The translations under genes and the position numbers were made by a program. Below, piece after piece: positions 44,269 to 47,646 of a stretch of DNA of 61,266 bases. Under the pieces are notes generated by a model. That model was not told where the DNA came from and made no database searches. It saw nothing but the letters and a program-made list of their open reading frames with translations. How positions within the stretch are numbered: position 1 is the stretch's first letter; the number at the start of each line of letters is the position of its first letter. Source of the stretch: Chloroflexota bacterium (GTDB taxonomy: Bacteria > Chloroflexota > JAHJIN01); the NCBI GenBank assembly GCA_018823415.1, contig JAHJIN010000368.1, forward strand, positions 1-61,266, in the 5' to 3' direction.

Positions 44269-44680
44269 TCACTCCCACTCGATGGTGGCCGGGGGTTTGG
44301 ACGAGATGTCATAGACCACGCGGTTCACGCCCGGCACGTCGCCCACGATGCGCGCCGAGATGCGCGCCAGCAAATCATGGGGCAGGCGCGCCCAGTCGGC
44401 CGTCATGAAATCCTCCGATGTGACTACGCGCACTGCCACCACGTTGGCATACGTGCGCCCGTCACCCATGACGCCCACGCTGCGCACCGGCAGCAGCACG
44501 GCGAACGCCTGGGCCGTGCGCCGATACCACCCGGCCGCGCGCAACTCTTCCAGCACGATGGCGTCGGCGGCCTGGAGTGTGGTGACGCTGTTTGGCACCA
44601 CCGGCCCCAGGATGCGCACCGCCAGGCCCGGCCCGGGGAACGGGTGCCGCCAGACCAGGTCTTCCGGCAGGCCCAACTCT
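44269..44680 (-). pseudogene. displaced native 3' end of guaA
   Basis: About 135 codons continue in frame with GMP synthase, from LGLPEDLVWRHPFPGPGLAV to the natural end KPPATIEWE. The first codons lack a start and a ribosome site and follow directly after the small regulator gene of the inserted element (junction near 44680). It aligns with the last 135 residues of the intact guaA at 46078-47646, with about half of the residues identical, and its codon use is GC-rich like the host genome, so this is the original end of the host gene. It contains the dimerisation-region residues only and cannot work alone. Confidence 0.85.
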
Positions 44681-44682
44681 GG

Positions 44683-44895
44683 TCAATCATAGTCAGCAGC
44701 AACTTGCTTGGTTCCTGCGTAAGCGATAATAGCCTCGCAGACAATTTCCGATTTGCTGTGGCCAAGGTTCTCTTCAAGGCGCATCAGGCTAGCGAGGGCA
44801 TTAGCCACTTCTTGAGCAATCTCTGACCGAACAGAGATGTTGAGTTGGGCCTGACCACTGGGCCTGATGTTCAGAATCCGGCTTATTTCAACCAT
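44683..44895 (-). CDS. ribbon-helix-helix DNA-binding protein of the guaA element
   Basis: A 70-aa protein. The pattern AQLNISVRSEIAQEVANALASL followed by LGHSKSEIVCEAIIAY is a ribbon-helix-helix: a short strand, a first helix, a turn and a second helix with the SKSE cap. I chose ATG 44895, nine bases after GGAGGAG; a GTG at 44913 falls at the expected transcription start. It reads away from the endonuclease gene, with a divergent promoter region containing inverted repeats, so it probably represses itself and the endonuclease. It ends a few bases before the displaced guaA tail. Confidence 0.75.
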   Translation of the reverse strand: MVEISRILNIRPSGQAQLNISVRSEIAQEVANALASLMRLEENLGHSKSEIVCEAIIAYAGTKQVAADYD

Positions 44896-44918
44896 GAGCA
44901 GCTTCTCCTCCACATTGG

Positions 44919-44992
44919 ATTCTACCTAATAGTCTGATAATTGTCAACAACAAGATGTTGACGAACTCTAGATATTAGTGTATACTAGAGAT
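44919..44992. promoter_or_regulatory. divergent consensus promoters with inverted-repeat operators in the guaA element
   Basis: Minus: TTGACA (44942-44947), 17 bases, TAGAAT (44919-44924) for the ribbon-helix-helix gene. Plus: TTGACG (44958-44963), 17 bases, TATACT (44981-44986) for the small ORF and endonuclease. A perfect 7-bp inverted repeat, GTCAACA (44943-44949) and TGTTGAC (44956-44962), spans both -35 boxes. A second repeat, CTCTAG/CTAGAG (44966-44971 and 44985-44990), covers the plus -10. These are typical places for a small repressor to shut both promoters. Confidence 0.8.
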
Positions 44993-45034
44993 GGAACTCT
45001 TGTACTACATGAACCCAGAAGGAGGGAAACAACG

Positions 45035-45217
45035 ATGACTCTAACGACGGATGAGCATCGGATCGTTATCACTTATCACGTCGGCCCAGAGTCAGAGACA
45101 CCGGCAACATGCATCAGTGGCGGCCGTAGGATGCAACACTCTAGGAGTGGAAGATGCCCAAACGAATTGATATTCCCAAGGAACAGTTGGAACGACTGTA
45201 CTACGATGAACGCCTGA
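45035..45217 (+). CDS. possible small protein upstream of and overlapping the endonuclease gene
   Basis: A 60-codon frame starts at ATG 45035 nine bases after a strong AGAAGGAGG site (45018-45026) and ends at 45217, overlapping the endonuclease start (45154) in another frame. The product begins MTLTTDEHRIVITYHVGPES. It has no recognised family and may instead be a leader that couples or limits translation of the endonuclease. The strong ribosome site is the only support. Confidence 0.45.
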   Translation: MTLTTDEHRIVITYHVGPESETPATCISGGRRMQHSRSGRCPNELIFPRNSWNDCTTMNA

Positions 45218-46164
45218 CGCAACAAGAAGTAGCAGAAAAACTTGGTTGCAGTGAGAAGGTCATCCGCACCAGAATGCGAGAATACCACATCGCGCGGCGG
45301 CGTGTTGGTGACTATTACCGAATCGAGATTTCCCCGGAGATGTTAGAACATCTATACCATGAGGAGAGGCTGTCCCAGAAAGAAATCGCCAAACGATTCG
45401 GCTGTAGTCGTCGAACAATCGGCGACAAAATGGCGAAACACAGGATTTCAGCGCGTCCCACCAGCGTCTCCACATGTTTAATCCCACAGGATGTTCTCAG
45501 ACAATGGTCCCCGCAATTAGCCTACGTTGTTGGTCTGATCGCCGCAGATGGCTGTCTATCCAGTCGAAATCCCAGCTTGGTCAGTTTTACTTCGAAGGAT
45601 TCTGAACTGGTTCAAACCTACCAACTCTGTTTGCATGTAGCCGCACCAGTCTACCGGGGTGTCCGGTCGTATGAGGTTCGCATCTCTGATTTGGCTTATC
45701 GCGCGTTCTTGGAAGGCATTGGTCTGATGCCTGTCAAAAGCAGAACCCTTGGGCCCCTGGAGATCCCTGACGAGTTCTTCCGGGACTTTCTCAGGGGATA
45801 CGTTGATGGCGATGGATGCATATCTTCTGCACTGGTAGTCATCATCGGTTCTGCAAGTTCGTCAGTCATTGAATGGCTGCAACAAACGGTAGAGCGACTG
45901 GCAGGCATCAAAGGGCATCTATACTTCTACTCACCCAAGAGATTCTACTCGCTTTCTTATTGCAAGAGCAAAGCACTTCACTTGCTTCCCTGGTTGTACT
46001 ACTCCCCGGATCTACCTTGCCTATCACGGAAACGGGCAATCTGGGATGCTTTTCTACCAGTGGAATGCGCTCTCGATTTAAAGCCACTCGATAGTCGCGG
46101 GTGGTTTTGTGGACAAGTCATAGACCACACGGGTGATGTCGGTCACTTCGTTGAGAATGCGTGA
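45154..46164 (+). CDS. LAGLIDADG homing endonuclease with two N-terminal helix-turn-helix repeats
   Basis: A 336-aa protein. Residues about 6-47 and 59-98 are two similar helix-turn-helix repeats (LTQQEVAEKLGCSEKVIRTRM and LSQKEIAKRFGCSRRTIGDKM). Then come two LAGLIDADG motifs: VGLIAADG at 126-133 and RGYVDGDG at 214-221, with catalytic Asp132 and Asp220. The protein would cut one long site, presumably in guaA near the HPFPGPG codons, and promote copying of the element. It is on the opposite strand to guaA, so it is not an intein. The last 29 codons (46078-46164) run antisense through the guaA 3' end and are probably a read-through tail. GGAG precedes the ATG. Confidence 0.88.
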   Translation: MPKRIDIPKEQLERLYYDERLTQQEVAEKLGCSEKVIRTRMREYHIARRRVGDYYRIEISPEMLEHLYHEERLSQKEIAKRFGCSRRTIGDKMAKHRISARPTSVSTCLIPQDVLRQWSPQLAYVVGLIAADGCLSSRNPSLVSFTSKDSELVQTYQLCLHVAAPVYRGVRSYEVRISDLAYRAFLEGIGLMPVKSRTLGPLEIPDEFFRDFLRGYVDGDGCISSALVVIIGSASSSVIEWLQQTVERLAGIKGHLYFYSPKRFYSLSYCKSKALHLLPWLYYSPDLPCLSRKRAIWDAFLPVECALDLKPLDSRGWFCGQVIDHTGDVGHFVENA

Positions 46165-47646
46165 ACTGACTCTGGTCAACAGTTCGTAGGGAAGCAGCGC
46201 TGGCGAAGCAGTCATAAAATCGTCTGTCTCGACAGCACGTAATACGATTGTCTGTCCAAACTTGTGGGCATCTCCAGCAACCCCCGTTGAGCGAGCCTCC
46301 GGCAATAATACGGCGAATGCTTGTGCAACCCGGCTGTACCACCCGGCCTCTTCAAGCTCCTGAAGGAAGATCGCATCAGTCTTGCGCAGTGTTTCCAGTC
46401 GTTCCCATGTGCTCTCGCCTAATATGCGGATCGCCAAACCTGGTCCGGGGAAGGGGTGACGCCACAGCAATTTGTGGGGCAGTCCCAACACCCTACCAAC
46501 CTGTCGGACCTCGTCTTTGAAGAGACTTCTGAGCGGTTCAATCAGTTTGAATGACATGTCAGGTGGCAACCCACTGACGTTGTGATGATGCTTGATGACA
46601 GCGGCTCCTCCTCGCTCAGTGGCATCGCTCTCGATGACGTCCGGGTAGAGCGTGCCCTGGGCCAGGAACGCTAGGTGCGCATCGGCAGTCCGCAGCCTGC
46701 GCGCCTCCTCCTCGAACACGCGCACAAACGTCTCGCCGATGATGCGCCGCTTGGCCTCCGGGTCCTCCACGCCGGCCAGGGCCGTCAGGAAGCGCTCGCG
46801 AGCATCCACCGCCATGACCTCGGCCGGGAGGTGCCGGTTTAGGACCGCCAGCACCTGCTGGGCCTCGTCCCGGCGCAGCAGGCCGTGGTCCACAAACACG
46901 CACACGAGCCGGTCGCCCACGGCCTGGCCCACCAGCAGTGCCATCACCGCCGAATCCACGCCGCCCGAGACGGCGCAGAGCACGTGGGCTTCGCCCACGT
47001 GGGCCCGGATGCGCGCCACCGCCTCCCGGACGAACGAGCCGGGCGTCCACGTGTCATGCAGCCCGCACACGCGATGGAGCCAGTTCGCCAGGATGTCCGG
47101 CCCGCGCGGCGTGTGCGTCACCTCCGGGTGGAACTGGAGGCCGTACAGCCCGCGTGACACATCGGCTATCGCCGCCACCGGGGCGTCGGCGGTGCGGGCC
47201 ACGGCGGCAAAGCCTGGCGGCAATGCCTCCACCCGGTCCCCATGGCTCATCCACACGTCCAGCGCGGGCGGCAGGCCGGCGAAAAGGGGGCAATCCGGGT
47301 CCAGCACCTCGGCCTGGGCCGGGCCATACTCGCGCTCCCGGGCCGGGGCCACGCGCCCGTCCAGGGTGTGGATCAAGAGCTGCATCCCGTAGCAGATGCC
47401 CAGGACCGGCAGCCCGCTGCCCAGCACATAGGCCGGGAGCGTGGGCGCGCCGGGGTCATAGACGCTGGCCGGGCCGCCGGACAGGATGAACCCGCGCGGC
47501 TCCAGGGCCAGCACGCGGTCCGGCGGCGCATCCCAGCGGAACATCTCGCAGTAGACGTGCGCCTCGCGCACGCGCCGGGCGATGAGCTGCGAGTATTGTG
47601 AGCCAAAGTCCAGGATGGCGATGGCCTCGCGGGGTTGGTCGGTCAT
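46078..47646 (-). CDS. guaA: GMP synthase (glutamine-hydrolysing), hybrid gene
   Basis: A 522-aa GMP synthase making GMP from XMP, ATP and glutamine. The class I amidotransferase domain comes first: ILDFGSQYSQLIARRV, GICYGMQLL with the catalytic Cys, LQFHPEVTHT with the His. The ATP-PPase has CAVSGGVDSAVMALLV. The C-terminal domain has WRHPFPGPGLAIRILG and ends KPPATIEWL. It is full length, but codons from about 343 to the end (46078-46615) are AT-rich, unlike the GC-rich first two thirds: the 3' end comes with the element at 44680-46615. ATG 47646 after GGAG. The stop region overlaps the antisense endonuclease frame by 87 bases. Confidence 0.95.
   Translation of the reverse strand: MTDQPREAIAILDFGSQYSQLIARRVREAHVYCEMFRWDAPPDRVLALEPRGFILSGGPASVYDPGAPTLPAYVLGSGLPVLGICYGMQLLIHTLDGRVAPAREREYGPAQAEVLDPDCPLFAGLPPALDVWMSHGDRVEALPPGFAAVARTADAPVAAIADVSRGLYGLQFHPEVTHTPRGPDILANWLHRVCGLHDTWTPGSFVREAVARIRAHVGEAHVLCAVSGGVDSAVMALLVGQAVGDRLVCVFVDHGLLRRDEAQQVLAVLNRHLPAEVMAVDARERFLTALAGVEDPEAKRRIIGETFVRVFEEEARRLRTADAHLAFLAQGTLYPDVIESDATERGGAAVIKHHHNVSGLPPDMSFKLIEPLRSLFKDEVRQVGRVLGLPHKLLWRHPFPGPGLAIRILGESTWERLETLRKTDAIFLQELEEAGWYSRVAQAFAVLLPEARSTGVAGDAHKFGQTIVLRAVETDDFMTASPALLPYELLTRVSSRILNEVTDITRVVYDLSTKPPATIEWL

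What the first reader, a model, noticed from the sequence alone, without database searches (positions are those of the whole stretch)
44269..47646. Hybrid guaA: a homing-endonuclease element has replaced the gene's 3' end and displaced the native one
Seen: guaA is full length, but its last about 180 codons are AT-richer than the rest; a second, GC-rich copy of the last 135 codons, without a start, sits 1.4 kb downstream; between them lie a two-motif LAGLIDADG endonuclease and a ribbon-helix-helix gene. The native copy begins exactly at the LGLP codons just before the HPFPGPG motif, a highly conserved stretch a nuclease could target. This is how an element would invade an essential gene without killing the host: it brings an edited target end that no longer contains the cut site. 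The layout recalls the fungal mitochondrial atp6 insertion with a foreign gene end, but a bacterial guaA version with its own regulator would be new to my knowledge.
Basis: partly seen in the sequence, partly recalled or inferred. Interest (0 to 1): 0.93.

Follow-up and report, generated by a model that had tools for sequence, protein, structure and literature searches.

The report
Bacterial homing element swaps gene ends
In this bacterium the housekeeping gene guaA has a last third unlike the rest of the gene, a second copy of that end matching the rest lies 1.4 kb downstream, and a predicted DNA-cutting enzyme gene sits between them, likely a selfish element that spread by swapping the gene's end, a trick known from fungi but not found for bacteria in our literature searches.

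Summary
GuaA (47646-46078, minus) is full length; third-position GC drops from 0.91 to 0.57 at codon 340 (interval 336-342; 0 of 1000 codon shuffles reach it). A displaced tail (44676-44269, codons 387-522) has the head's codon usage; the LAGLIDADG gene and small ORF between them have the hybrid tail's. So an AT-rich unit [guaA end + nuclease + ORF] sits inside a GC-rich guaA. The hybrid tail belongs to a distinct class (31 proteins, 75-85% identical; the next 89 listed 71% or less) with His/Tyr/Arg/Ala for the Thr/Ser of IK[T/S]HHNVGG, just past the break. Another MAG, G735, has this tail class with a GC step at about the same place, and a second hybrid, recD2, switching sharply beside a convergent nuclease relative. 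I read this as a bacterial WHO-type homing element: a new variant of a known kind. Cleavage, site (predicted near codons 340-356, not LGLP/HPFPGPG) and resistance are inferred. The ribbon-helix-helix label is unproven, and head trees do not reject common descent of the tail-class heads.

The parts
46627..47646 (-). guaA codons 1-340: native head of the hybrid gene (GC 0.72, GC3 0.91)
46621..46639 (-). composition breakpoint inside guaA (codons 336-342), just after the conserved QGTLYPDVIES stretch
   Evidence: change-point on GC3, dlogL 40, 0 of 1000 shuffles
46078..46626 (-). guaA codons 341-522 plus stop: foreign-class ('type A') tail, GC 0.54
46576..46599 (-). VIKHHHNV: altered version of the near-invariant IK[T/S]HHNV motif; predicted edited nuclease site (inferred)
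   Evidence: 31 of 31 tail-class proteins lack T/S there; 88 of 88 and 93 of 93 others that hold the motif have it
45154..46164 (+). free-standing two-motif LAGLIDADG endonuclease ORF with helix-turn-helix repeats; codons beyond 46077 run antisense into guaA
45520..45552 (+). first LAGLIDADG motif (AYVVGLIAADG), Asp132 invariant in 32 aligned sequences (window and 31 relatives)
45784..45816 (+). second LAGLIDADG motif (DFLRGYVDGDG), Asp218 invariant, Asp220 in 90% or more of the 32
44914..45153 (.). AT-rich divergent intergenic region (GC 0.45) between nuclease and small ORF; holds a short ORF from 45035 behind a Shine-Dalgarno-like AGGAGG (by eye)
44683..44913 (-). small ORF (76 aa, or 70 aa from the ATG at 44895), codon usage like the hybrid tail; possible ribbon-helix-helix protein, unproven
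44269..44676 (-). displaced native guaA tail, codons 387-522, open to the stop, GC3 0.89

Best explanation
The interval is likely a bacterial counterpart of the yeast WHO homing elements: a unit of [foreign guaA 3' end + free-standing LAGLIDADG nuclease + small ORF] that would spread by having its predicted nuclease cut intact guaA alleles and repair copy the unit in. Shown: the gene is a composition hybrid, the native-type end lies behind the nuclease, and nuclease, small ORF and new end share one codon usage unlike the head's. Inferred mechanism: in a cell holding donor DNA and an intact guaA, the nuclease cuts near codons 340-356; repair copies the donor's end and nuclease, so the recipient keeps its own head, gains an end whose altered IK-H-HHNV motif is no longer cut, and its former end (from codon 387 on) is pushed downstream. 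GuaA stays full length throughout, so a housekeeping gene can be invaded without splicing, and the displaced end may serve as the downstream homology arm in the next round. The nuclease may later be lost, leaving a resistant hybrid gene, which is how I read MAG G735.
For: Composition step and shuffles; displaced tail codon usage like the head, nuclease and ORF like the hybrid tail. Tail identities fall in two groups: 31 proteins at 75-85%, the next 89 listed at 67-71%, while head identities hardly differ (means 60.8% of 30 and 58.0% of 89). Tail tree: 28 full-length class members plus window tail form one clade, SH-aLRT 100, for codons 387-522 and 341-522. Motif change in 31 of 31 against 0 of 88 and 0 of 93. 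G735 guaA: same tail class (82%), GC3 0.81 to 0.52 at -58 relative to HPFPGPG (window -56); 46 control guaA genes: mean step -0.02, SD 0.04, maximum 0.09. G735 recD2: last 122 codons 0.91 to 0.54 next to a convergent nuclease relative, against 26 controls with maximum 0.10; protein identity to P0246/P0266 falls from 94-100% (residues 522-626) to 71-80% after about residue 640, while tails of P0242/P0243 are 95-99% with heads 88-90%. Two-repeat LAGLIDADG fold, best hits I-Tsp061I, TliVMA intein and I-DmoI, with acidic residues conserved.
Against: Head trees do not reject one clade of tail-class heads (AU p 0.29; with window 0.28; window + A6 0.25; two others 0.15), so repeated swapping of the guaA tail is not proven by trees. 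Nuclease plus displaced tail was seen only in the window; in 0 of 18 nuclease-relative loci do duplicated gene ends flank the nuclease, and of 18 genes beside nucleases (15 loci, window included) only guaA and recD2 show a strong 3' drop; a third convergent neighbour (lysine-decarboxylase-type gene, L131) shows none (dlogL 2.3). No equal contig lengths link the 31 tail-class guaA proteins to the listed nucleases (compared by eye). A unique MAG contig (contamination 7.6%) leaves some assembly risk. The G735 guaA break is loosely placed (interval -65 to -43), and protein-level change-points between class groups fall at 450-453. In the tail tree the window tail could also sit just outside the class (AU p 0.14). 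Activity and target are untested.
Confidence: 0.72

Rival explanations
1. Ordinary recombination replaced the 3' third of guaA with a relative's, and the nuclease later landed in the duplicated region by chance.
For: A tail-class hybrid exists without a nuclease beside it (G735 guaA); most nuclease relatives stand at sites without end swaps.
Against: Nuclease, ORF and tail share one codon usage and lie in one insert between native head and native tail; an independent hybrid end (recD2) also abuts a convergent relative of the same nuclease.
Confidence: 0.15
2. A free-standing nuclease of the T4 Seg/Mob type resided downstream of the donor's guaA; on transfer, homologous repair joined on the guaA side only and the other end was closed by non-homologous joining at the break, so the displaced tail is a one-off scar and not part of the element.
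For: recD2 in G735 has the swapped end and nuclease but no displaced recD2 tail on its 11 kb contig; the right junction shows no shared sequence beyond the gene itself (by eye).
Against: The three-part order equals that of WHO elements, where the fragment is a proposed recurring homology arm.
Confidence: 0.3
3. The displaced tail and hybrid are two host paralogues or a metagenome assembly chimera.
For: MAG with 7.6% contamination; single contig.
Against: Two copies only 59% identical at DNA level with a composition break inside the intact gene; a similar break in another genome.
Confidence: 0.07
4. An integrase-type genomic island using guaA as attachment site restored the gene end.
For: guaA as an island integration site is recalled; one search lists 26 papers holding guaA with integration site, genomic island and integrase (listing only).
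Against: No integrase between the copies; replaced end is 182 codons and 59% identical, not a short restored end.
Confidence: 0.02

Closest known systems
WHO homing elements of Torulaspora and Lachancea yeasts at FBA1 (Coughlan et al. 2020, PMC7282813; abstract and sections 6, 7, 9, 10, 11, 13 read)
   Same: Free-standing LAGLIDADG nuclease between a full-length gene with a swapped 3' end and a displaced fragment of the old 3' end; gene ends evolve discordantly; an added DNA-binding domain; nuclease may oppose the gene; no splicing.
   Different: Bacterium; guaA and recD2 instead of FBA1; stand-alone LAGLIDADG_3 with helix-turn-helix repeats instead of intein-like protein with zinc finger; extra small ORF; one element, no cluster; haploid host that would have to receive donor DNA by transfer; cleavage untested.
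Fungal mitochondrial mobile ORFs that replace gene C-termini (atp6, atp9, cox2, nad3; PMC3630166, passages read; Allomyces atp6 as cited there)
   Same: Endonuclease ORF carries a foreign gene end and leaves the native end downstream, with similar divergence (63.5% DNA identity in Glomus atp6).
   Different: Mitochondrial; [quoted passage not shown] here it is convergent and independent, in a bacterial genome.
T4 Seg/Mob free-standing nucleases, 'intronless homing' (PMC2988022, passages read)
   Same: Intergenic nuclease, often next to the gene it cuts; co-conversion of flanking sequence.
   Different: GIY-YIG or HNH in phage; no displaced gene ends described in the passages read.

Membership tests
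WHO-type (gene-end-replacing, non-splicing) homing element | Nuclease lies between a full-length host gene and a 3' fragment of it | tested here: met
WHO-type (gene-end-replacing, non-splicing) homing element | Host gene is a chimera of native 5' and donor 3' parts | tested here: met
   class tail
WHO-type (gene-end-replacing, non-splicing) homing element | 5' and 3' parts of the host gene have contradictory phylogenies | tested here: inconclusive
   tail clade support 100; tail tree rejects A6+B12 (p 7e-13), a grouping of the best head tree; but head trees do not reject the tail grouping (p 0.15-0.29)
WHO-type (gene-end-replacing, non-splicing) homing element | Nuclease cuts sensitive alleles and not the resistant one | not testable with these tools
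   only an altered conserved motif past the break
WHO family proper (HO/WHO proteins) | Intein-like protein with zinc finger | tested here: not met
   window protein: helix-turn-helix repeats plus LAGLIDADG_3, no zinc finger; two relatives, P0002 and P0003, have an N-terminal CxxC pair (by eye)
LAGLIDADG homing endonucleases | Two LAGLIDADG helices with catalytic acids and two-repeat fold | tested here: met
   (I-Tsp061I E 8e-9; I-DmoI); which Asp is catalytic is recalled from the motif
LAGLIDADG homing endonucleases | Site-specific DNA cleavage | not testable with these tools
   no assay
Integrative element at guaA | Integrase gene in the insert | tested here: not met
   only the nuclease and small ORFs between the copies
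Ribbon-helix-helix regulator (small ORF) | Match to a ribbon-helix-helix family or fold | tested here: inconclusive
   0 families in Pfam, NCBIfam, PHROGs; model pLDDT 55

The most novel reading that the evidence does not exclude
Probability: 0.53. Interest if true: 0.86.

Novelty: new variant of a known kind. Interest (0 to 1): 0.73.

Why it matters
It would extend to bacteria a way of invading needed genes that I found described for yeast nuclei and fungal mitochondria: no splicing, just a replacement end that keeps the gene working and would block re-cutting. It gives a source of gene mosaicism (heads and ends of housekeeping genes with different histories) that can mislead trees built on such genes, could explain unusual residues at otherwise near-fixed motifs, resembles a natural 'home and rescue' drive, and makes a direct test possible: one nuclease, two alleles, cut or not.

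Tried and rejected
Searches of family, order and class around the window's genome returned only that genome, so the phylum and the class of G348 were used. Six of 400 phylum genomes (own included) had two GMP_synt_C matches; checked: G175 has two full-length copies 0.87 Mb apart, G171 and G219 split over contigs, G179 has two pieces in one frame, and G116 a 90-codon fragment on another contig; none repeats the window's layout. The longer tail query gave two matches also in G223 and G285: G285's contig holds only one, G223 was not examined. A nuclease scan of genome contigs gave four loci at 34-40% identity; viral contigs gave none with P0002 and 80 distant loci with the alignment, which I did not examine. 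Phage and plasmid relatives, as far as listed, are 23-41% identical. The idea that all nuclease relatives carry gene ends was tested and dropped: 0 of 18 loci with duplicated ends flanking the nuclease; of 18 adjacent genes two strong 3' drops, with weaker ones (dlogL about 7) inside the range of 88 non-adjacent genes (median 3.3, top 36.2). The lpd-type gene's 5' step (dlogL 13.8) was not counted, since larger 5' steps occur in non-adjacent genes. Protein-level change-points between tail-class groups fall at residues 450-453, not 340: in residues 361-440 the two classes are about equally similar. A recD2-nuclease link in other contigs rests only on equal contig lengths (59001: P0007/P0245; 4277: P0004/P0252) plus 72-86% identity of those nucleases to the G735 one; the shorter match may be chance. 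No Rfam match in 43000-48500. Rows dropped: 3 of 31 tail-class proteins and 19 of 89 comparison proteins by length, then every second of the remaining 70, and half of 30 genome references; four long-branch references; 2 of 28 recD2 loci by length, and two kept ones (L234, L251) aligned poorly. Controls are the 46 guaA loci, of about 100 offered, that held one open frame over 480 codons with the motif; the 93 references were selected by holding the motif.
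Full report
What is there. The window is contig C334 of an unnamed 6.9 Mb genome, 93% complete, 7.6% contaminated; searches of its family, order and class returned no other genome. Its phylum looks like Chloroflexota (protein names say Anaerolineae and Chloroflexota). On the minus strand guaA runs 47646 to 46078 (522 codons). 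Convergent to it, and overlapping its end in antisense, is the nuclease ORF 45154-46164; then, divergent from the nuclease, a small ORF 44913-44683; then a guaA tail without a start, 44676-44269. The own genome has no other GMP_synt_C copy and no other close copy of the nuclease (one 26% match).

The gene is a hybrid. GC3 along guaA is 0.91 up to codon 340 and 0.57 after (2-log-unit interval 336-342); the best of 1000 codon-order shuffles reaches dlogL 8.7 against 40.4. With synonymous-codon models of head and tail, the displaced tail scores +50 log units for the head; nuclease and small ORF score -149 and -34, that is, for the hybrid tail. Median GC3 of 37 long ORFs in the window is 0.78, so head and displaced tail (0.91, 0.89) are above the local average but match each other. 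The two tails are 59% identical in DNA (240 of 408).

Where the tail comes from. A protein search with residues 341-522 scored 8000 candidates and listed the best 120: 31 proteins at 75-85% identity, then 89 at 67-71%. In the first group identity to the window's head averages 61% (30 proteins), in the second 58% (89), while the displaced tail is closer to the second (75.8% against 59.8%). In the tail tree the 28 full-length members of the first group plus the window's tail form one clade (SH-aLRT 100, and for residues 341-522). In the head tree the same proteins fall into four separate groups, but a tree holding all their heads together is not rejected (AU p 0.288, with the window's head 0.28; further head constraints p 0.15-0.25). 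The reverse test, holding group A6 with its head neighbours B12 in the tail tree, is rejected (p 7e-13). So the tail is a distinct class; that it was swapped several times is likely but not proven by trees.

The break and the altered motif. All 31 class members have His (27), Tyr (2), Arg (1) or Ala (1) in place of Thr/Ser in IK[T/S]HHNVGG (window 46588-46590); 88 of 88 comparison proteins with the motif (one of 89 had none) and 93 of 93 reference guaA ORFs selected by holding the motif have Thr or Ser; all 31 end in IEWL where 87 of 89 end in IEWE. The motif begins about 10 codons after the break. I infer that this is the edited cleavage site.

A second genome and a second gene. One of 396 genomes of the class of G348 has this tail at 82% (two more pass the E limit at 70%), and none of the matches listed for 399 other phylum genomes exceeds 67%. 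The one is G735, whose recD2 is 100% identical to a protein named as from an Anaerolineae MAG (P0241). Its guaA shows GC3 0.81 to 0.52 with the best split 58 codons before HPFPGPG; the window's is 56 before (interval in G735 -65 to -43). Forty-six control guaA genes have steps of mean -0.02, SD 0.04, maximum 0.09. No displaced tail lies within the 9.6 kb around G735 guaA, and its only nuclease match is on another contig. That match is the best among 392 class genomes searched (46% identity; 11 of 392 have one at E 1e-15); it is convergent with recD2, the two stop codons directly adjacent. This recD2 falls from GC3 0.91 to 0.54 at codon 644 (interval 640-646; 0 of 1000 shuffles), against 26 control recD2 genes with mean -0.02, SD 0.05, maximum 0.10. 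Proteins P0246, P0247 and P0266 share 93% of its head but 76-79% of its tail, while P0242 and P0243 share 88-90% of the head and 95-99% of the tail; the switch is at about residue 640, at the GDKVMQxxNNY motif. There P0241-P0244 have Val, Ala or Thr where at least 67 of the 113 proteins with the motif have Arg (top 25 variants listed). No displaced recD2 tail is present on that contig. The G735 nuclease is 84-86% identical to P0005-P0007; P0007 shares a contig length with recD2 protein P0245, which suggests but does not show linkage.

The nuclease. Pfam LAGLIDADG_3 and helix-turn-helix families; 32 aligned sequences keep Asp132 and Asp218 (all) and Asp220 (90% or more); the model (pLDDT 89) matches I-Tsp061I, the TliVMA intein and I-DmoI. 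WhiA, a LAGLIDADG-derived regulator, appears at rank 20. Relatives stand beside genes that Pfam domains mark as recD2, a dihydrolipoyl-dehydrogenase type, prolyl-tRNA synthetase, Obg, CoaBC type and solute-binding proteins (gene names mine). Of 18 neighbours (window included) only guaA and recD2 show a strong 3' composition drop facing the nuclease. Both are convergent with it; a third convergent neighbour, a lysine-decarboxylase-type gene in L131, shows none.

Mechanism. The layout equals that proposed for yeast WHO elements: chimeric full-length gene, nuclease, displaced old 3' end; there the nuclease cuts slightly upstream of where many fragments begin, and conversion runs 106-306 bp towards the stop codon and only 5-14 bp the other way (PMC7282813, sections 9 and 10). 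By that analogy the cut in guaA lies close to the break at codon 340, and the displaced fragment lost its first 46 codons. Cleavage, resistance and transfer are inferred. The alternative that the displaced tail is a one-off non-homologous scar of an intronless-homing event remains open (rival 2).

Novelty. The kind is known (WHO elements; fungal mitochondrial mobile ORFs, PMC3630166, passages; related: T4 intronless homing, PMC2988022, passages). No bacterial case showed in the listings of ten literature searches of an open-licence library that lacks most subscription journals; of the listed papers I opened only those named here and the outline of PMC10448857. Hence: new variant of a known kind.

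Noticed in passing
L129 (G735:C78) 3204-6554: Second hybrid gene: recD2 with a swapped last 122 codons beside a convergent relative of the window's nuclease; the GDKVMQxRNNY motif at the break varies between tail groups.
   Followed up: yes
P0134: A tail-class guaA end read in one ORF behind an IS1595-type transposase domain (Pfam PF12760, PF12762), with part of the upstream guaA codons missing (by eye): a disrupted guaA copy.
   Followed up: partly
L045/L083 (G116:C6, about 147820): A lone 90-codon guaA end fragment on a different contig from the intact guaA; upstream the reverse strand reads like the end of an IS110-type transposase (by eye, recalled).
   Followed up: partly
window 45035-45217 (+): Short ORF with an AGGAGG-like ribosome site overlapping the nuclease start in another frame; no family match.
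   Followed up: partly
window 40518-42594 (-): Two overlapping ORFs (41053-42594 and 40518-42092) look like one membrane-protein gene broken by a frameshift (by eye).
   Followed up: no
P0002, P0003: The two nearest nuclease relatives carry an N-terminal CxxC-pair (zinc-finger-like, by eye) segment absent from the window's protein, reminiscent of the zinc fingers of HO/WHO nucleases.
   Followed up: no
G735:C410:9694-10206: A second, 40% identical GuaA-like match in G735 in a 328-codon frame.
   Followed up: no
L132 and L133 (G605, G638): The same gene neighbours (PLP-enzyme, nuclease relative, amidohydrolase) in two genera of one family, suggesting a nuclease resident at one intergenic site.
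   Followed up: partly
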